Source of the DNA: Moraxella sp. VT-16-12
Lineage (GTDB): Bacteria; Pseudomonadota; Gammaproteobacteria; Pseudomonadales; Moraxellaceae
Assembly (NCBI RefSeq): GCF_002224245.2
Contig: NZ_NKHK02000013.1
Span: 1 to 44,729 of the forward strand
DNA length: 44,729 nucleotides
Direction of reading: 5' to 3'
This document shows, piece by piece, positions 28,390-39,828 of this stretch. Every line of letters begins with the position of its first letter. Positions within the stretch are counted from its first letter, which is position 1. The notes under the pieces are model-generated. The model made no database searches. It worked only from the letters and a program-made list of their open reading frames with translations, and had not been told where the DNA came from. Made by a program: the position numbers and the translations under genes.

Positions 28390-28992
28390 ATGAAAAAATC
28401 TCTTCTTGTTTTGGCGGTTGCCATGCTTTCTACATCTGCTTTTGCTGATGATACTTTGATTGAAACCGAAGATCCAACACTCGGTATTACAGCATCAACT
28501 GCGACCAGTGGCATGGTAAAATTTACTGATGGTCGTATTATTCAATCTACCTGTAAAATTGCGACTGATTCAGTTAATAAGGTTGTTCAGCTAAAATCAG
28601 TACAAAGTAATGAGTTTAAAACGGTGGGTGACGTTGCAGGTAGTGTTGAATTTGTTTTAAAAGTAGCTGATTGCCCAAACACATATGTTGATGGGGAAAC
28701 GGGTGAGAAAAAGACTAAATTAGGTATTAAATTTACCTCTTCATCCAACATTACCGCAGATGGCAGGTTAAAAAATATTGCCACAGGTGTGGCAGCAGAA
28801 GGTGTGGAGCTGCAACTACTTAATAGTGGAAATGGGGTTATTAATTTGAATGATAATACTAATAACGACCCAGTACAACCAATTGGTGGCAAGAACCATA
28901 TACTTAATTATGTAGCAAGATATGTATCAACAGGTAATGTGTATGCTGGTAAGTTTGAAACTAATGTACCCTTTACGGTTCAATATAAATAA
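28390..28992 (+). CDS. Type 1-like fimbrial major subunit
   Basis: A 200-residue pilin: signal peptide cleaved after AFA (residue 19), an N-terminal donor-strand-like segment, Cys55 and Cys95 positioned for the fimbrial disulfide (IIQSTCKIAT and VADCPNTY), and the C-terminal beta-zipper FETNVPFTVQYK with the penultimate-type tyrosine that chaperones recognise. Donor-strand exchange through the chaperone-usher route is expected from the two following genes. AGGA lies about 8 bases before the ATG. The mature protein is Asn/Thr rich and the receptor cannot be inferred. Closest named families are FimA-like; not a type IV pilin (no prepilin motif). Confidence 0.85.
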   Translation: MKKSLLVLAVAMLSTSAFADDTLIETEDPTLGITASTATSGMVKFTDGRIIQSTCKIATDSVNKVVQLKSVQSNEFKTVGDVAGSVEFVLKVADCPNTYVDGETGEKKTKLGIKFTSSSNITADGRLKNIATGVAAEGVELQLLNSGNGVINLNDNTNNDPVQPIGGKNHILNYVARYVSTGNVYAGKFETNVPFTVQYK

Positions 28993-29005
28993 TTTTCGTA
29001 ATAAC

Positions 29006-29037
29006 AAACAAAGCCACTCTTTTGGGTGGTTTTGTTT
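29006..29037 (+). terminator. Intercistronic hairpin between pilin and chaperone
   Basis: AAACAAAGCCAC (29006-29017) pairs along its whole length with GTGGTTTTGTTT (29026-29037), one G-T pair, extendable to 14 bp with a TTTT loop. Located 13 bases after the pilin stop and 24 before the chaperone ATG. Probably a partial terminator or RNA-stability element that keeps pilin mRNA in excess. Confidence 0.7.
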
Positions 29038-29061
29038 TCGTTGGTATGTTTGGAGAGAGAT

Positions 29062-29748
29062 ATGATAAAGTGGTTTTTGGCAACGACATTATGTTTGATG
29101 AGCGTGGCACAAGCAAATATCATCATGGGTACACGAGTGATTTATCCATCAAATGAAAAAGTGGTGGCGGTAGATCTGCAAAACCCTGATGACACACCCA
29201 GCTTGGTACAAGCATGGATAGATGACCCAAATCCTAATGCCACCAAAAAAGTTCCCTTTATCATCACACCGATGGTGGGGCGAGTTGAGTCAAAGAGCAG
29301 ACAAAGTTTACGCATTCGCCAAGTGGGAGATGATTTGCCCAAAGACCGTGAAAGTTTATTTTATCTCAATGTCTTAGATATACCCGCCAAACCAAAAGAT
29401 GCAGGTGATAGCTACCTACAAATTACTTTGAATAATCGGCTTAAATTCTTTTATCGTCCGTCTAAGCTGCCCTATCCTGTAACGGACGCTTATGATAAGG
29501 TAACGTGGCATTGGGCAAATAAGACATTGACACTAAATAATCCAACGCCCTATTATATCACCTATGCGGGGGTGATGTTGCGTGATGATGAGCGTGTGCT
29601 ATATAAGACATCAGATATTGATATGATAGCACCGTTTGGCACATTAACACTAAATGTAGCGATTGATGATATACCAAGTCAAATAGATTGGCACATCATT
29701 AACGACTATGGGGGGATAGGTTCTGGCAAATCAATGGTTCAACAATGA
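29062..29748 (+). CDS. Periplasmic fimbrial chaperone (PapD-like)
   Basis: Binds pilin subunits in the periplasm by donor-strand complementation and passes them to the usher. The 228-residue protein has a signal peptide (cleavage after AQA, residue 18) and an immunoglobulin-like N-domain with the subunit-binding Arg in TRVIYPS (residue 25), the SLRIRQVG strand, the short F1-G1 linker, and NRLKFFYRP containing the conserved Lys; the second domain follows. The short F1-G1 region puts it in the FGS class typical of pili rather than thin capsule fibres. The frame is open upstream but ATG 29062, with GGAGAGAG before it, is the start. It overlaps the usher by four bases. Confidence 0.92.
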   Translation: MIKWFLATTLCLMSVAQANIIMGTRVIYPSNEKVVAVDLQNPDDTPSLVQAWIDDPNPNATKKVPFIITPMVGRVESKSRQSLRIRQVGDDLPKDRESLFYLNVLDIPAKPKDAGDSYLQITLNNRLKFFYRPSKLPYPVTDAYDKVTWHWANKTLTLNNPTPYYITYAGVMLRDDERVLYKTSDIDMIAPFGTLTLNVAIDDIPSQIDWHIINDYGGIGSGKSMVQQ

Positions 29749-32183
29749 AGAAGCAGCTATTAAAACAGACGCTTGTGCTATGTGTGGTGTCTGCCATGTA
29801 TGGGTCGGTGCAAGCAGATGATGGTTTTGAATTTAATCCAGCTTTTTTGCATGGTGGCGTGTCTATTGACCCAGAAGCCTTTCGCTACGGCAACCCAATT
29901 AATGCAGGCGAATATTTGGCGGATATTTATGTCAATGATGAGTTGCGTGGACAGCAGTTGATAACATTCATCAAAGCAGATGGCGAGCCAATGCGTGGTT
30001 TATGTTTGACTGATGAGCTGATTAATCTGATTGATGTTAAAGCAGATTTTAAGCCAAAATCACCTTTGACTGCCTGTATGCCTGCTCCTGATTTTCATGA
30101 TGATATTAAATTTCGCTTTGATATTGGCACGCATCGCCTTGATATTTCTGCTCCCCAAGCGATATTGATGACTTATCCTAAGGGCTATATACCACGCACG
30201 GCATGGCAACAAGGTGAGCCGATGGGTTTTGTCAAATACCATTTTAATAGTTATCACTATGATGTAAATAATCGCTCATCTGAACAAAGTTATTTGGGAG
30301 TACAAACAGGGTTAAACTTTGGGGGTGCGTGGTCATTTCGCCAAAGTGGCTCCACTTCTTGGAGAGATGGCAAACATGGAGAGTATCACCATCAAAATGC
30401 TTATTTGCAAAGAGACATTGATAAATGGAATGGTCGGCTATATGTGGGGGACTTTAATACACAAAGCACATTATTAGATAATTTTGCCATACGTGGTGTG
30501 GCGATAAATTCTGATATTAGAATGCTTCCAAACTCACAAACAGGCTATGCCCCAAGAATACAAGGGGTCGCCAAATCCAATGCTCGGGTGCGAGTACGTC
30601 AAAATGACACCATCATTCATGAGATGACAGTGCCTGCGGGGCTGTTTGTCATTGATGATTTGTATGCGTTATCATCAACATCGGGAGATTTGGTGGTGGA
30701 AGTGTTGGAAGCAGATGGTACTTCTTCGGTGTCTGTGGTGCCATTTAGTAGCACAAGTCAAATGCTTCGTCCTAATCAGCTTCGTTATCAGGTTGCCCTA
30801 GGTCAGTATCGCCGTCAAGATGATGTGGTGGATAAGCCACTGTTGCATGGTTCTATGCAGTATGGTTTAAATAATCATGTTACCATGCAAGCAGGCGTGA
30901 TTTTGCATGACAATTATTGGTCAAATACCCTAGGTGGTGTGTGGGGCAGTAAATACGGAGCGATATCGGCAGACTGGACAGGAGTGAGTGCCACCATTGC
31001 GAATAAACGATTAAATAACAATCGTTTTCATGTGGGTTATACCAAGTATTTTGGTACTCCCAAGACTTATGTGAATGCAGATTGGCATCATTATTTTGAC
31101 CAACAAAACTTTTCTTTGTCTCAAACTTTATCATCTTCAAATACACCCATCACGCATAGCCCCCGCTATTCTTTAAAAAACCAGTATCGTCTTAGCATTA
31201 ACCAAAATTTAGGAAAGCGGGGCGGATTGTATGTTTCGGGGATATATAATGATTATTGGCAAGGTGAGCAGGATTATAATTATCGGCTTGGCTACTCTAG
31301 TAGCGTGGGGCGTTTGCAATATCAGGTCGGTGTGGCTCGCAGTTATCTTGTCAATCATGCACGCCATGAAAATATGATATATGTCAATCTGAACTTGCCA
31401 TTTTATGCTGCAAATGAACGTGGTACGTCAAGCATTTCATCAAATTATCAACGCACGGCGAATCGTGATTATCTGAGCGCTTCTTATCATCGTAATTTTG
31501 GTGATTTAAACCAATATCATTATGGGCTTAGTGCAACCAAAACTGATGATAATAAACCAAGCATTTCAGCCAATGCTGGTGCATCATTATCTATGGCACA
31601 ATTGAATATGTCTGCCAGTCGTCATGATAAAGACACGCAGTATTCCTATGGGGTATCAGGAGCGATGGTTGCTCACAAACACGGCATTACTTTTAATCAT
31701 GAGCTTGGTGATACCTTTGCTGTTATTCATGCAAAAGGTGCAAAAGGCACACCTGTGGTTGGTGGTAGTGGCACAAAGCTTGACCGTTTTGGTAACGGCG
31801 TGGTCAGTCATCTAAACCCCTATCGCAATAATTATATTGCCTTAGATGGTGCAAAACTGCCTGATAATGTTGAAATTGCTGAGACAGGGCGTGGGTTTGT
31901 ACCTAGGGCAAATACCGCTAATTTGGTAACTTTTGACACCAAATCAGGACAGTTGGTATTGTTTGATATTGATTTTAAAGCAAATACAGCTCCTGCTTTG
32001 ACCGAAGCTGTTGATGAGATGGGCAATGTGGTGGGACATATGACACATGATGGCAGGTTGTTGGCACGGCTTGCGACACAAAAAGGTGCGATTACACTAA
32101 AATGGGCAAACGATTCATGTGTGTTTGATTATCAAGTCAATGATACTCAGGATTTGGTTGTACAAGCAGTTAAGTGTCAATAA
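29745..32183 (+). CDS. Outer-membrane fimbrial usher (FimD-like)
   Basis: Outer-membrane pore that polymerises and secretes pilin. The 812-residue protein starts with a signal peptide (cut after VQA near residue 24), then the usher N-domain (FEFNPAFLHG, INAGEYLADIYVNDEL), the 24-strand barrel with the plug domain around 230-330 (IRGVAINSDIRMLP, GYAPRIQGVAKSNARV), and C-terminal domains ending in a Cys pair (CVFDYQV and KCQ). It is shorter than FimD (about 880). Start overlaps the chaperone stop (ATGA). Its 3' end overlaps the convergent permease gene by 14 bases. No adhesin or second pilin gene follows. Confidence 0.94.
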   Translation: MKKQLLKQTLVLCVVSAMYGSVQADDGFEFNPAFLHGGVSIDPEAFRYGNPINAGEYLADIYVNDELRGQQLITFIKADGEPMRGLCLTDELINLIDVKADFKPKSPLTACMPAPDFHDDIKFRFDIGTHRLDISAPQAILMTYPKGYIPRTAWQQGEPMGFVKYHFNSYHYDVNNRSSEQSYLGVQTGLNFGGAWSFRQSGSTSWRDGKHGEYHHQNAYLQRDIDKWNGRLYVGDFNTQSTLLDNFAIRGVAINSDIRMLPNSQTGYAPRIQGVAKSNARVRVRQNDTIIHEMTVPAGLFVIDDLYALSSTSGDLVVEVLEADGTSSVSVVPFSSTSQMLRPNQLRYQVALGQYRRQDDVVDKPLLHGSMQYGLNNHVTMQAGVILHDNYWSNTLGGVWGSKYGAISADWTGVSATIANKRLNNNRFHVGYTKYFGTPKTYVNADWHHYFDQQNFSLSQTLSSSNTPITHSPRYSLKNQYRLSINQNLGKRGGLYVSGIYNDYWQGEQDYNYRLGYSSSVGRLQYQVGVARSYLVNHARHENMIYVNLNLPFYAANERGTSSISSNYQRTANRDYLSASYHRNFGDLNQYHYGLSATKTDDNKPSISANAGASLSMAQLNMSASRHDKDTQYSYGVSGAMVAHKHGITFNHELGDTFAVIHAKGAKGTPVVGGSGTKLDRFGNGVVSHLNPYRNNYIALDGAKLPDNVEIAETGRGFVPRANTANLVTFDTKSGQLVLFDIDFKANTAPALTEAVDEMGNVVGHMTHDGRLLARLATQKGAITLKWANDSCVFDYQVNDTQDLVVQAVKCQ

Positions 32184-33673: not shown

Positions 33674-35413
33674 TTACATTTTTTCTACGGTTTGAATGCC
33701 CAATAATGTCAAGCCTTGTTTTAAAGTTTTGGCAGTTAAGTCAGCAAGCTGTAAACGGCTATTTTTAATCGGCGTGTCAGCAGACAGTATCGGGCAGGCT
33801 TCATAAAATGATGAAAATATCCCTGCCAATTCATACAGATAGCCACATAACAAATGGGGCATGCCATCTTTGGCGACTTGTCTTAGAACTTCTTCAAATT
33901 GCAGCAGTTTGATGGTTAAAGTTCGCTCCTTGTCATCACTGATGATGATGTCGCCTGTCAAATCATTGCTGTCCAATCCTGCTTTTTCAAAGATGGAGCG
34001 GATACGAGTGTAGGCGTACTGGATATAAGGGGCAGTATTGCCTTCAAAATTGAGCATATTATCCCAATCAAACACATAATCAGTTGTGCGATTTTTGGAC
34101 AAATCAGCATATTTGACCGCACCAATACCAACCGCTTCAATGAGCTTTTGTTTGTCGTCATTGCTGATATTGGGGTTTTTTTGCTCAATGAGTGTGCTGG
34201 CACGAGCAACCGCTTCATCAAGCAGTTCGGCAAGTTTGACCGTGCCGCCTGTGCGAGTTTTAAAGGGTTTGCCGTCCTTGCCAAGCATCATGCCAAAATT
34301 ATGGTGTTCAAGCAAAAAGTCATCAGGCACAAATCCGCCAAGCCGTGCGATTGCCCATGCTTGTGCCATGTGCTGACTTTGGCGAGTGTCTGAATAGACG
34401 ATGGCACGGTCTGCGTGCAAAATCTCATGTCGATATTTGGCGGCGGCGATGTCGGTGGTGGTGTACAGATAGCCACCATCCTTTTTTTGGACAATCACCC
34501 CCAAGGGTTTGCCATCTTTATTTTTAAATTCTGACAGATAGACCACATACGCCCCATCGTCTTCTACGGCAAGCCCTTGTTTTTTAAGACTTTCTACAAT
34601 ATCTGCCAGCATGGGGTTGTACAAACTTTCTCCCATGATGTCTTTATCGGTCAAAGTTACGCCCAAGCGTTCATAACTGACTTGGTTTTGGGTCATGGTG
34701 ATGGCAACAAGTTTTTGCCACATGGATAAACAATATTCATCACCGCTTTGCAGACGTACGACATACAGGCGAGATTTTTCGGCAAAAGCATCATCATTGT
34801 CATAGGTTTCTTTGGCGGCACGATAAAACTCTTCTAAATCAGATAAATCCAAATCTGAGGCATTTTCGTTTTGCATTTTTTCAAGATAAGCAATGAGCAT
34901 ACCAAACTGTGTGCCCCAGTCGCCAACATGATTGGCACGAATGACATGGTCGCCCAAAAATTCCAACACTCTGACGGTGCTATCACCAATGATGGTGGAA
35001 CGCAAATGTCCCACGTGCATCTCTTTGGCAACATTGGGTGATGAATAATCCACCACCACCGTTTGGGTGTGGTCGCTATGGATGCCAAGTTTGTCAGTGG
35101 TGCGAGCAAATTGGGCGGATTGACTTAAAAACGTGTTATCAAGAAAAATATTGATAAAACCTGGTCCTGCGATTTCTAGTTTTTCAGCGATGCCGTTTAA
35201 GACTTGGCTGTGGTTAAGCTCATCTATGACTGCTTGGGCAAATGCTCTTGGGTTTTGTCCGAGTTTTTTGGCAACCCCCATCACCCCATTGGCTTGATAA
35301 TCACCAAATTGGGGCTTGCTTGACTGTTTGATGATGGGGTCTGTATTTGTGTCCGCTCCTGCGTGTATCATGGCGGTTTTGATGTGGTTGGACAGTAGGG
35401 CTTGAATGTTCAT
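33674..35413 (-). CDS. argS: Arginyl-tRNA synthetase
   Basis: Class I synthetase that charges tRNA-Arg. The 579 residues match the family: N-terminal Add1 domain (1-110, for example [20 protein letters not shown]), the HIGH-type motif [11 protein letters not shown] near 135-146, the catalytic core with [31 protein letters not shown] in place of KMSKS, and the C-terminal anticodon-binding domain with [12 protein letters not shown]. The TATAAT-like element at 35444-35449 on the minus strand is close to the start but has no good -35. Confidence 0.97.
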
Positions 35414-35535: not shown

Positions 35536-35569
35536 TTGTCATAGAGTTGTCATTTTTGTTTGATAAACT
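35536..35569 (+). promoter_or_regulatory. Pho box and -10 of phoB
   Basis: Two identical TTGTCAT heptamers (35536-35542 and 35547-35553) separated by AGAG, i.e. an 11-bp direct repeat as in the PhoB-binding site. TAAACT at 35564-35569 lies 10 bp downstream, the spacing used by PhoB-activated promoters where the box replaces the -35. Fits autoregulation of phoB. The rest of 35414-35685 shows no gene. Confidence 0.75.
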
Positions 35570-35685: not shown

Positions 35686-36375
35686 ATGCCAAAGGTGCTT
35701 ATTGTTGAAGATGAAGTTGCCATTGCACGGCTCATTGAGTTTGGGCTGGAACAGGCAGGCTTTTTGGTGCAAATGGCAGAATCTGCCGAAGATGCCAAGA
35801 TGTTGATAAATGAGTGTTTGCCCGATGTGGTTTTGCTTGATTGGATGCTGCCTAAGATGTCTGGGATGGAACTGCTACAAATACTTAGGCAAAATAAACG
35901 CACCAAAGATTTGCCGATTGTTTTGCTGACCGCTCGTGGCGAAGAAAAAGACAAAGAAACAGGGCTAAATCTGGGGGCGGATGATTATGTTACCAAGCCA
36001 TTTAGCCCAAGAGAGCTTGTGGCACGCATCAAGGCACTGCTTAGAAGACGCACGCCCCATAAGAGCGATGATGTCATTACTGTGGGCAAAATCACTCTAA
36101 ATCCTGCCGAGCATCGTGTTTGTGTAGATGGTGTGGCGGTGTATTTTTCGCCAATGACCTTTAAATTGTTGCATTTTTTTATGACACATACAGGGCGGAT
36201 TTATGGTCGGGGCGAGCTTTTAAACCTTGTGTGGGGCGACCATGTGTTTATTGAAGAGCGAACGGTAGATGTCCATATCAGGCGATTGAGACGTGAACTT
36301 GAAGCGGTGGGTGTGGCAGATTATATACAGACGGTGCGTGGCGTAGGTTATGGTTTTGGGAACGTATCTTGTTGA
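35686..36375 (+). CDS. phoB: Phosphate regulon response regulator PhoB
   Basis: OmpR-family regulator activated by PhoR under phosphate limitation. The 229-residue protein has a receiver domain with the acidic pocket VEDE (residues 8-10), phosphoacceptor Asp52 in LLDWMLP, Thr82 and Lys104 in VTKPFSP, and a winged-helix DNA-binding domain (about 130-229) with RTVDVHIRRLRREL as recognition helix, ending VRGVGYGF. The PSRELVARIKALLRRR-type linker and sequence identity with PhoB favour PhoB over other OmpR-type regulators, and the Pho box upstream supports it. It overlaps the phoR start codon region by 26 bases. No pst or phoU genes are in view. Confidence 0.93.
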   Translation: MPKVLIVEDEVAIARLIEFGLEQAGFLVQMAESAEDAKMLINECLPDVVLLDWMLPKMSGMELLQILRQNKRTKDLPIVLLTARGEEKDKETGLNLGADDYVTKPFSPRELVARIKALLRRRTPHKSDDVITVGKITLNPAEHRVCVDGVAVYFSPMTFKLLHFFMTHTGRIYGRGELLNLVWGDHVFIEERTVDVHIRRLRRELEAVGVADYIQTVRGVGYGFGNVSC

Positions 36376-37625
36376 TGTCTTGTGGTGCGTGATTGCAGTG
36401 CTTTTTGTGCTACTGATGGGTTTTGTTTGGCTGTTGGTGTGTCAGTTGCGTCAAGTGGCTCATCTTAACACATGGTTAAAAAGCCCAAAAAAAACAGCAC
36501 ATTTCTATTGATGGCTCTGTACCGTTTTTTGGCGATTGGCAGGGGATATATGATGAATTATTGCGCATTGAAAACGGTCATCAAAAGCGAGCTGAACGCT
36601 TAAACAAGACCATTCATCGCTTAAACCGCATGATGACCGCCATACCCAGTGCTGTACTCATCATCAATGAAAAAAAAGGCATAGAATGGAAAAACGCCAA
36701 AGCGGACGAATATTTATCCTTACAAAATGAACCATTGCCACTGGATAAAAAAATCAATGATGATGGTTTTTGCTCATTTTTATCAAGTTTGTTGCCACAT
36801 AAAACAAACAGCAAACAATCAGATGACAGCAGTATAGAACAAACATTAAAATTCAACCAAAAAACCTTACATTGCACGCTCATTCCCATAGAAGCTAATG
36901 CCACCATGTTGATTGCTCATGACATGACTGCCAGCGAACAGCTTAATGTTTCAAAAAATGCTTTTATTGCCAATGTCAGCCATGAGTTACGCACGCCTTT
37001 GACGGTGATACAGGGGTTTTTGGAAACTTTGTCAGAAAATGAGCTAGACCGTGCCTTGCAGTTGGAATTTATTGGGCTGATGTACCAACAATCTGAGCGA
37101 ATGCTAGATTTGATAGAAGGACTGCTGACCTTATCACGCTTAGAAAATGATGACAGCCCAATAAAATTGCCAGTAAATCTATCTAAACTGATGATGAGTA
37201 TCATTAAAGATGCCAAAGCACTCTCTAAAACACATAAGATGGATACCAACATTACAGATGATGTTTGGGTGATGGGTGTGTATAAAGAGCTATATAGTGC
37301 CTTTGGTAATTTGATTTTTAATGCCATTCATCATACAGCTGGTGGCACGCAGATTGACATTGATTTGTCTGTGGATGGCGGTCAGGCGGTATTTTTTGTC
37401 AAGGATAATGGTGAAGGCATTAGCGGTGAGCATTTGTCGCATTTAACAGAGCGGTTTTATCGGGTGGATAAAGGCAGAAGTCGCAAAACAGGCGGTAGTG
37501 GTCTTGGGCTTGCCATTACTAAGCACATTTTAGCTCGCCATCATGCCACCTTGACAATTACCAGTGAAGTGGGTGTGGGCAGTAATTTCGGGGTAAAGAT
37601 GTCATGCATCAACCCACCAAACTAG
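36350..37625 (+). pseudogene. phoR: Phosphate sensor histidine kinase PhoR, split by a frameshift at an A8 tract
   Basis: Membrane sensor kinase partner of PhoB. The ATG at 36350 opens a frame with a TM segment (VLWCVIAVLFVLLMGFVWLLV) and a linker RQVAHLNTWL, which ends at a TGA at 36509-36511. Removing one A from the run at 36487-36494 joins it to the frame that continues to 37625, restoring about 424 residues (E. coli PhoR has 431). In that frame follow the FFGDWQGIYDELLRIENGH segment, a PAS-like region, the H-box SHELRTP with phosphoacceptor His211 in the joined numbering, N-box FNAIHHTA, DNGEGIS and GGSGLGLAI. Without the repair, only a soluble kinase from TTG 36561 (354 residues) could be made. 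It may be a true mutation, programmed or transcriptional slippage, or a sequencing error. Confidence 0.85.
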
Positions 37626-37720: not shown

Positions 37721-39268
37721 TTATTTTAAAAACAACTGATAACCAACATTGTCTGTCAAAGCGTGGCACTGATAGCCAATTTCGCCCAATGCATCCATAA
37801 TCTGACGACCACTACCTGAGCTGGCTTGAAGCCCCACCAAAATCCGCCCTTCGGCAGCTCCATGATTGCGATAATGAAACAGCGTGATATTAAAATCCTG
37901 CCCTAATTTTTCCAAAAAGTTAAGCAGTGCCCCCGGTCGCTCAGGAAACATCACCCGAAACACTTGTTCATCGGTCAAATTGGTGTGCCCACCAATCAAA
38001 TAGCGAATGTGTGTTTTGGCAAGCTCATCATCGGTCAAATCAACGCTTTGATAGCCACTTTGCTCTAAAATGCTGCTGATGGTTTGACGTTCTTTTTGTC
38101 CTTCTTTGAGTGCCACGCCCACAAAAATGCGAGCAGGACTGTCAGGGTCTTGGGTATTGACTCGATAGTTAAATTCGGTGATGTTACGCCCCTGCAAAGT
38201 GCGACAAAACTCCAAAAATGCCCCTGTTTTTTCGGGGATTTGTACGGCAAAAATCGCTTCTTTTTGCTCGCCAATCTCGGTACGCTCAGCGATATAACGT
38301 AAGCGGTCAAAGTTCATGTTTGCCCCTGAGATGATGGCAACCATATTTTTACCATGTAAGTTGTGCATTTGGACGTATTTTTTTAGACCTGCCAACGCCA
38401 ACGCCCCAGACGGCTCAACAATGTGGCGATTTTCTTCAAAAATATCTTTGACAGACGCGCAAATCTCATCATTACTGCATGTAACGACATCATCAATCAC
38501 TTTGCCTTGACCGCTTGATTTGTTTAAATTGGCAATTTCAAAAGGCAACTGACCGATTTGGGCGACCGCCACACCATCAGCAAATAGGCTCACTTGCGAT
38601 AAACGAGTGCGTTTGCCGTCTTTTAGGGCGACATTTAGGCAAGCTGAGCCTTCGGACTCTACGGCAATCACTTTGACGTGGGGGGCAACTTCCCCCAAAA
38701 ACGCCGCCACGCCTGCCACCAGTCCGCCACCGCCCACAGGCACAAACACATATTCTAGCTCTCGCCAGTCTTGGGACAGCTCCAAAGCGACCGTGCCTTG
38801 ACCTGCAATGACCAGCGTATCGTCATAAGGGGCAATGTAAGTCATGCCATCTTGCTCGGCTTTTTGTATGGCAAAGCGGTTGGCTTCATCAAAGCTATCA
38901 CCATGCAAATACACTGTACCGCCAAAGGCTTTAACCGCCTTGACTTTGATGTCAGGCGTGGTTTTTGGCATGACAATTAAGTTATTTAGCCCCAAACGAT
39001 GAGCTGAATAGGCAACGCCTTGGGCGTGGTTGCCAGCGGACGCACAGATGATGCCTTTGGCTTTTTGTTCGTCTGACAGTTGGCTGATGCGGTTGTATGC
39101 CCCACGCAGTTTAAAGCTAAATACTGGTTGTAAGTCCTCGCGTTTTAGGCGTATGTCATTGTCAAAGCGGGCGGATAATTTGTCTGCTTTGTCTAGGGGG
39201 GTGCGTATGGCAACATCATAAACGGTGGCGGTGATGATGGCACGGACGTAGTCGGATAGGGTGATCAT
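37721..39268 (-). CDS. ilvA: Biosynthetic threonine deaminase (threonine ammonia-lyase)
   Basis: PLP enzyme converting threonine to 2-oxobutyrate, the first step of isoleucine synthesis. The 515-residue protein has the PLP lysine in FSFKLRGAY (Lys53), the glycine-rich SAGNHAQG phosphate loop, VPVGGGGLVAGVA, and two ACT-like regulatory domains in the C-terminal third (about 325-515), where isoleucine and valine act. The two ACT repeats mark the allosteric biosynthetic type rather than the catabolic TdcB. ATG 39268 is preferred to the TTG at 39286 because it gives the usual N-terminus; it lies eight bases after the stop of the upstream secreted-protein gene. Confidence 0.96.
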   Translation of the reverse strand: MITLSDYVRAIITATVYDVAIRTPLDKADKLSARFDNDIRLKREDLQPVFSFKLRGAYNRISQLSDEQKAKGIICASAGNHAQGVAYSAHRLGLNNLIVMPKTTPDIKVKAVKAFGGTVYLHGDSFDEANRFAIQKAEQDGMTYIAPYDDTLVIAGQGTVALELSQDWRELEYVFVPVGGGGLVAGVAAFLGEVAPHVKVIAVESEGSACLNVALKDGKRTRLSQVSLFADGVAVAQIGQLPFEIANLNKSSGQGKVIDDVVTCSNDEICASVKDIFEENRHIVEPSGALALAGLKKYVQMHNLHGKNMVAIISGANMNFDRLRYIAERTEIGEQKEAIFAVQIPEKTGAFLEFCRTLQGRNITEFNYRVNTQDPDSPARIFVGVALKEGQKERQTISSILEQSGYQSVDLTDDELAKTHIRYLIGGHTNLTDEQVFRVMFPERPGALLNFLEKLGQDFNITLFHYRNHGAAEGRILVGLQASSGSGRQIMDALGEIGYQCHALTDNVGYQLFLK

Positions 39269-39276
39269 GGGGCTTT

Positions 39277-39828
39277 TTAATTCCAATCAATACTAACGAT
39301 TTTATTTTGTTTGACGGTTTTGAGATGTTGAAATTTTTTGTGCTGTTCATGCCAAGCATAAACTTCATAGGTGATGCTTTGTCTGGCTGTGGTGTCGCTT
39401 AACTCTTCTTGCGTGCAGCTGCGTTTGATAAACAGACGGCTGTTTGGATAAAATTGTAAACGTTCATCCTCTTGATGTTCATCGTCGCTAGAATAACACC
39501 CATCATAAGCCAGTCCATCGTTATCATCAGGTAAACCATATACCTGCCCTGTCTTTTTGTCAATCATCGCCCCAGAAATACACCCTGTGCCACAACCCCA
39601 AATCTCCACAATATAACTGCCTGCAAAGTTGATTGTGCCATCTTTGTGAGCATCACTTAGGCGGGTTTTGAAAAGTTTCCATTCACCAAGTTTCAATGGA
39701 GCTTTTTTGCCTGTATAAACCTTGGCAGGGTATTTGCCAAACTCATAGCCTGCCACCGTTTTGGCGTAGGCGAAAGTGGTTAATAATGGCAAAAGTAAAA
39801 GTGATAGTGTTAAAGCCAGTTTGTTCAT
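39277..39828 (-). CDS. Secreted hypothetical protein
   Basis: A 183-residue protein with a clear Sec signal peptide (1-22, cut after AYA) and a mature part of about 160 residues. Conserved-looking features are GSYIVEIWGCGTGCISGAMIDKKTGQVYGLP, with a Cys-x-x-x-Cys pair, and two later cysteines, suggesting disulfides in the periplasm. I do not recognise a family with a known function. AAGGAAAA precedes the ATG. Located directly upstream of ilvA with an eight-base gap, so probably co-transcribed, though no functional link is evident. Confidence 0.8.
   Translation of the reverse strand: MNKLALTLSLLLLPLLTTFAYAKTVAGYEFGKYPAKVYTGKKAPLKLGEWKLFKTRLSDAHKDGTINFAGSYIVEIWGCGTGCISGAMIDKKTGQVYGLPDDNDGLAYDGCYSSDDEHQEDERLQFYPNSRLFIKRSCTQEELSDTTARQSITYEVYAWHEQHKKFQHLKTVKQNKIVSIDWN

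What the first reader, a model, noticed from the sequence alone, without database searches (positions are those of the whole stretch)
36350..37625. phoR is broken at an A8 tract beside an intact phoB
Two open frames carry the N-terminal membrane half and the kinase half of PhoR; deleting one A at 36487-36494 restores a normal 424-residue kinase. If real, PhoB here is uncoupled from its sensor or depends on slippage. A8 is long enough for RNA-polymerase slippage and for replication slippage, so phase-variable or programmed expression is possible. The downstream part has kept all catalytic motifs, so the loss is either recent or tolerated.
Basis: partly seen in the sequence, partly recalled or inferred. 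Interest (0 to 1): 0.75.

Follow-up and report, generated by a model that had tools for sequence, protein, structure and literature searches.

The report
Broken phosphate sensor beside intact regulator
A bacterium in whose genome the main phosphate pump was not found also carries a split gene for the matching phosphate sensor; it looks like one step in the gradual loss of a signalling system, not a purpose-built switch.

Summary
phoB is intact; phoR is split into a membrane piece (36350-36511) and a complete kinase frame (36480-37625), and the break lies in a 32-bp overlap containing the A8. Six same-genus phoR copies aligned there are intact and lack the tract.
The surroundings explain most. 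PstB, PstC above cut-off and PhoU were not found in this genome. Relatives show stages at one locus between argS and ilvA: pst-phoB-phoR (G016), phoB-phoR (G011), phoB with broken phoR (window), neither gene (G010). G010 is the window's sister on the Mfd and RpoB trees, not on the PHO4 tree. I read the break as recent decay of a sensor that had lost its partner.
Programmed slippage fits poorly: the common slips lead to a third frame ending at 36603. A8 is ordinary here (44 runs of 8 or more in 458 kb, 25 inside coding-like frames). Phase variation and assembly error stay open: no second genome of the species was available.
By-product: 7 of 15 PhoR in the genus show no membrane segment and form one clade.

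The parts
35537..35553 (+). Pho box (17-base PhoB site, no mismatch) upstream of phoB
   Evidence: 6 sites at 1 mismatch or fewer in the genome against 1 for the backward pattern
35686..36375 (+). phoB, intact response regulator, 229 aa
   Evidence: TIGR02154 313.3 bits, cut-off 296.2; Response_reg and Trans_reg_C
36350..36511 (+). N-terminal piece of phoR: one predicted membrane helix, 53 aa
   Evidence: PF11808 E 0.002, below cut-off
36480..36511 (+). the only stretch open in both frames; the break must lie here
36487..36494 (+). A8 tract, probable site of the frame change
36472..36603 (+). third frame, where the commonest slips would lead; ends at 36603
36480..37625 (+). kinase frame of phoR (linker, HisKA, HATPase_c), first ATG/GTG/TTG is TTG 36561
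36670..36677 (+). second A8 tract in the same gene, in frame
33674..35413 (-). argS, left border of the locus
   Evidence: TIGR00456 over cut-off
37721..39286 (-). ilvA, right border of the locus
   Evidence: NF006674 over cut-off

Best explanation
phoR here has been put out of action recently by a length change in an A tract, within a phosphate-response locus already being dismantled. The lineage lost the Pst transporter, which in several relatives sits between argS and phoB and in enteric bacteria holds PhoR in check, and it has no recognisable PhoU. [quoted passage not shown] PhoB and its binding sites remain (at phoB itself and before a PHO4-family transporter), so PhoB is for now uncoupled from phosphate and acts at a basal level or through other phosphate donors. 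Shown: the break, the intact PhoB, no Pst or PhoU found, the Pho boxes, and the stages of loss in relatives. Inferred: recency, the order of events in this lineage, and the physiological effect.
For: Frames and tract. Intact copies without the tract in G012, G016, G005, G007, G020 and G011. PstB (E 1e-80 or better) in 12 of 22 genus genomes, not in the window's; PstC over cut-off in the same 12 (the window's genome has 5 weak matches, best 44.9 bits against a cut-off of 196.45); PhoU (E 0.001) in 3 of 22, not here. One locus, four states, by distance between matches: G016 argS to phoB 4431 bp with pst between; G011 183 bp with phoBR intact; window 272 bp with phoR broken; G010 argS to ilvA 85 bp with no phoB or phoR match. 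G010 is sister to the window's genome on the Mfd tree (100/100) and the RpoB tree (99/99). Kinase frame not accelerated: PhoR/PhoB branch ratio 1.0 against 1.4-2.5 elsewhere. Three perfect Pho boxes remain, none in G010. Loss of pst or phoU promotes the PhoR kinase state in enteric bacteria (PMC10055408, passages).
Against: G011 also lacks Pst and PhoU matches yet keeps phoR intact, so loss of Pst need not bring loss of phoR. Nine of the 12 Pst-bearing genomes also lack a PhoU match, so the enteric model may not carry over. The PHO4 tree does not make G010 the sister, and of the flanking genes ilvA is nearer to G011 (90%) than to G010 (84%), while ArgS is equally near to G016, G010 and G018 (81-82%); recombination or weak signal is possible. 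The low ratio could also mean that PhoB ran fast. The tract could be an assembly error or vary within the species; only one genome was available. The phosphate role of the PHO4-family transporter rests on family and Pho box alone; NCBIfam scored sulphate permease and PitA models alike, both far below cut-off.
Confidence: 0.6

Rival explanations
1. Sequencing or assembly error: the real tract differs in length and phoR is intact in the living strain.
For: One draft assembly of 60 contigs, platform unknown; homopolymers are the commonest error of several platforms (recalled); the kinase frame shows no relaxed evolution.
Against: 25 of 44 runs of 8 or more in a 458-kb sample lie inside uninterrupted coding-like frames, including another A8 in phoR itself. 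In a check of the 44 for two overlapping same-strand frames of 30 codons or more, four runs showed that geometry; only phoR and one other (C43:146653-146660) had positive codon scores on both sides, and at the other the downstream frame has an ATG directly before the tract, so it reads as an ordinary gene start. So there is no sign of a general homopolymer problem.
Confidence: 0.2
2. Phase variation: the tract changes length at replication, so cells switch PhoR on and off by heredity.
For: A/T tracts of 7-8 bases are sites of reversible breaks in flgS and flgR, a two-component system of Campylobacter jejuni (PMC7677240, passages). The kinase half is intact, and PhoB with three perfect Pho boxes is kept.
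Against: A8 is common in this genome (37 A/T runs of exactly 8 in 458 kb). No tract at this place in six relatives. G010 has no phoBR at the locus. No second strain to show length change.
Confidence: 0.11
3. The kinase half is made alone as a soluble kinase and still drives PhoB, like the natural membrane-free PhoR of relatives.
For: Seven of 15 PhoR in the genus show no membrane segment and no PF11808 match. The 354-aa frame from TTG 36561 is about as long as five of them (345-353 aa). The 20 bases before TTG 36561 pair with the anti-Shine-Dalgarno as well as or better than in 75% of 216 genes (-6.4 kcal/mol).
Against: Those seven form a separate clade (100/99) in PstB-bearing genomes. The pairing before TTG 36561 comes from AGGGG about 15 nt away, which the energy does not penalise; it lies 4 nt before the third-frame ATG 36550. 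The ATG codons at 36630 and 36633 have almost no ribosome site.
Confidence: 0.06
4. Slippage by RNA polymerase or ribosome at A8 makes some full-length PhoR.
For: Runs of 9 A or T are treated as transcriptional slippage sites in bacteria, and IS elements of Nostoc have runs of 8-10 A (PMC1088944, passages). Slippage rises exponentially with run length (PMC5574713, passages).
Against: In the same study insertions prevail in A and T runs, 80% of insertions are of one base, and fewer than 1% of E. coli transcription deletions begin in runs; the single insertion, like a -1 ribosomal slip, leads to the third frame, which stops at 36603. In Buchnera 15 or 16 deletions in runs were seen against 151 insertions, so deletion slips exist.
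Confidence: 0.03

Closest known systems
PhoBR phosphate two-component system (TIGR02154 and TIGR02966)
   Same: phoB-phoR order, PhoB over cut-off, PhoR kinase domains, Pho box before phoB
   Different: phoR is split; no Pst transporter or PhoU found in the genome; kinase piece scores 327.3 against a cut-off of 334.2
flgS/flgR of Campylobacter jejuni, broken reversibly at A/T tracts of 7-8 bases
   Same: a two-component gene pair with breaks at short A/T tracts
   Different: variation within populations and reversal reported there (PMC7677240, passages), not testable here; here the partner transporter is missing as well
phoR reading-frame differences between Deinococcus radiodurans strains (PMC11219805, one passage)
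   Same: one-base difference at phoR changes the predicted product
   Different: there the predicted size changes between 331 and 305 aa, and Pst genes are present

Membership tests
functional PhoR sensor kinase | HisKA and HATPase_c domains with PhoR-type similarity | tested here: met
   (score just under the equivalog cut-off)
functional PhoR sensor kinase | membrane domain and kinase in one open reading frame | tested here: not met
functional PhoR sensor kinase | Pst transporter and PhoU as signalling partners | tested here: not met
phase-variable gene | tract length varies between strains or within a culture | not testable with these tools
   no second genome of the species available
phase-variable gene | tract kept at the same place in relatives | tested here: not met
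   0 of 6 relatives aligned
programmed frameshift gene | the common slip leads into the downstream frame | tested here: not met
   it leads to the third frame, stop at 36603
programmed frameshift gene | split conserved in homologues | tested here: not met
   14 of 14 other genus phoR have no stop inside the matched stretch and read as single frames
natural membrane-free PhoR | gene starts at the PAS region with no membrane segment | tested here: not met
   the window's gene begins with a membrane piece, and its kinase groups with the membrane type

The most novel reading that the evidence does not exclude
The A8 tract is a hereditary on/off switch for PhoR in a bacterium without Pst or PhoU, so that a population is mixed for control of its PHO4-family transporter by PhoB; phosphate response by bet-hedging instead of sensing.
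Probability: 0.08. Interest if true: 0.75.

Novelty: new member of a known kind. Interest (0 to 1): 0.4.

Why it matters
It catches a two-component system part-way through loss, with fuller and emptier states visible at the same locus in relatives, and makes the order testable: transporter first, sensor next, regulator last. The by-product, a clade of PhoR without membrane segments in genomes with Pst, bears on the open question of where PhoR reads its signal; a preprint on Salmonella argues for an intracellular signal (PMC10055408, part of the abstract and passages).

Tried and rejected
Programmed slippage: set low because the common slips lead to the third frame. Soluble kinase: poorly placed starts. 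A de novo scan for frame switches in 458 kb gave 64 events, not followed up except one (C43:146653); many have a start codon near the stop, as in ordinary gene overlaps. The scan did not flag phoR itself, whose N-part scores low, so it is insensitive and I draw no rate from it. The genome-contig scan returned 6 distant kinases, none of use. G019 gave no match in any of nine genus-wide searches by family, protein or pattern nor, and only 4 first-look candidates (PstB); it looks masked or withheld, so its blanks mean nothing, though it stays in the counts of 22. G003 is 63% complete, so its missing PstB is not evidence. RpoB was not found in G009, G012 and G015 either, a reminder that absence in drafts is soft; the window's genome is 99.99% complete. 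In the PhoR tree I labelled 8 outgroup rows as membrane type but had tested only G022. The branch-length trees used a constrained topology. Membrane segments rest on a simple hydropathy window (cut-off 1.6; G013 and G015 peak at 1.50 and 1.51) and Pfam. The Pho box scan before the PHO4 genes had no shuffled control of its own; one search gives 0-2 backward-pattern sites per genome. Literature: the listings (36 and 58 listed 15 of 17 and 12 of 27 papers; one found none) showed no report of a broken phoR in this genus or of a membrane-free PhoR; only the open-licence PMC library was searched.

Full report
WHAT IS THERE. The window is a whole contig of a 60-contig, 2.15-Mb genome; 21 further species of its genus were searched, unnamed. 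By gene content I take the genus to be Moraxella; that is recall, not a call. phoB (35686-36375) is intact and over the PhoB cut-off, with a perfect Pho box at 35537-35553. The N-terminal frame 36350-36511 holds one predicted membrane helix; its only Pfam match is the PhoR membrane domain, below cut-off. The kinase frame is open from 36480 to 37625 and has HisKA and HATPase_c. The two frames are both open only in 36480-36511, which contains the A8 at 36487-36494. At the sampled density, 0.0024 runs of 8 or more are expected in such a stretch.

INTACT COPIES. In G012, G016, G005, G007, G020 and G011 phoR is one frame of 426-445 aa and the DNA at this place is no homopolymer. Orthologous PhoR (E 1e-80 or better) is found in 15 of 22 genus genomes, window included; PhoB (E 1e-50 or better) is found in the same 15. 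The other 14 PhoR have no stop inside the matched stretch.

IS IT AN ARTEFACT. In a sample of 457,886 bases (21% of the genome, window included) there are 44 homopolymers of 8 or more. 25 are spanned by a coding-like open frame, including a second A8 in phoR at 36670-36677. Tested for two overlapping same-strand frames of 30 codons or more, 4 of the 44 show that geometry; two of these, phoR and C43:146653-146660, have positive codon scores on both sides, and at the second an ATG stands directly before the tract, as at an ordinary gene start. The phoR N-part itself scores weakly (0.025 per codon), so its coding nature rests on PF11808 and on WLKSP shared with G011. This argues against a general homopolymer error, but a single error cannot be excluded without reads.

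THE PARTNERS WERE NOT FOUND. PstB is in 12 of 22 genus genomes and PstC over cut-off in the same 12; the window's genome is not among them. PhoU is in 3 of 22, not here. [quoted passage not shown] A PHO4-family transporter is in 21 of 22 genomes. In the window's genome it has a perfect Pho box in front; across the genus the box is there with at most one mismatch in 17 of 21, including 14 of 15 PhoB-bearing genomes (G006 has 2 mismatches) and 3 of 6 in which PhoB was not found (no control in that call). Beside it in the window's genome lies a Na/Pi cotransporter gene.

FOUR STATES AT ONE LOCUS (distances between tblastn matches). G016: argS, then pst, phoB, phoR, then ilvA (argS to phoB 4431 bp). 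G011: argS, phoB, phoR, ilvA (183 bp). Window: argS, phoB, broken phoR, ilvA (272 bp). G010: argS and ilvA 85 bp apart, no phoB or phoR match. G014 likewise lacks both between argS and ilvA (286 bp). G010 is the sister of the window's genome on the Mfd tree of 20 genomes (100/100) and on the RpoB tree of 18 (99/99, 94.9% identity against at most 92.4% for others), but not on the PHO4 tree of 21, where it joins G017 and G021 (93/89). Of the flanking genes, ilvA is nearer to G011 (90%) than to G010 (84%), and ArgS does not decide. G011 lies elsewhere on the Mfd tree, so the states are parallel examples and not one line of descent. G010 is 86% complete, but the argS-ilvA junction is seen directly. 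G018, G017 and G021 show no ilvA in the stretches taken around argS; G009 gave no argS.

HOW RECENT. On constrained seven-species trees the window's branch is 0.34 for the PhoR kinase and 0.34 for PhoB, ratio 1.0; the ratio elsewhere is about 1.4 (G007), 2.2 (G020), 1.5 (G011) and 2.5 (G016). On four-species trees it is 1.2 against 1.7 (G011), 2.4 (G020) and 2.8 (G016). The kinase has not evolved faster relative to PhoB, which fits a recent loss, an artefact or a gene still used; a fast PhoB would look the same.

MECHANISM. Best reading: the sensor lost its input with Pst, and a length change in the A tract then ended it; PhoB remains uncoupled (0.6). Slippage rescue is unlikely: transcription slips on A/T runs are mainly single insertions (PMC5574713, passages), and the single insertion, like a -1 ribosomal slip, leads to the third frame, which stops at 36603. 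Phase variation has a real parallel in flgS/flgR of C. jejuni, with A/T tracts of 7-8 bases (PMC7677240, passages), but needs more strains. A soluble kinase from TTG 36561 is possible: the pairing energy before it is as good as in 75% of 216 genes, but the paired AGGGG is 15 nt away and suits a third-frame ATG better.

BY-PRODUCT. Seven of the 15 PhoR (G013, G004, G006, G008, G015, G001, G002) have no predicted membrane segment and no PF11808 match, which three of three membrane-type proteins tested have. They form one clade (100/99) and all seven genomes have PstB. The listings showed no report of membrane-free PhoR. Moraxella catarrhalis is reported to induce pst and phoBR in the cold (PMC3699543, passages).

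Noticed in passing
L009, L010, L011, L016, L020, L021, L023: PhoR without a predicted membrane segment in seven same-genus species that keep PstB; one clade.
   Followed up: partly
L155, L172, L170 (G018, G009, G014): A Pho box (0 or 1 mismatch) before the PHO4-family gene is kept in three genomes in which no PhoB was found; what reads it is unknown.
   Followed up: no
L106:8706-8722: Third perfect Pho box of the window's genome, before a small protein (likely start near L106:8791, by eye signal-like; searched from 8740) with no Pfam match.
   Followed up: no
L105:5472-7193: Na/Pi cotransporter gene directly upstream of the PHO4-family gene and its Pho box.
   Followed up: no
genus genomes G016, G012, G005, G007, G020, G004, G006, G008, G013: PstB present but PhoU not found in nine of 12 PstB-bearing genomes, unlike the enteric model.
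   Followed up: no
window 28390-32183: Small chaperone-usher cluster: usher by NCBIfam below cut-offs; subunit and chaperone named by recall.
   Followed up: no
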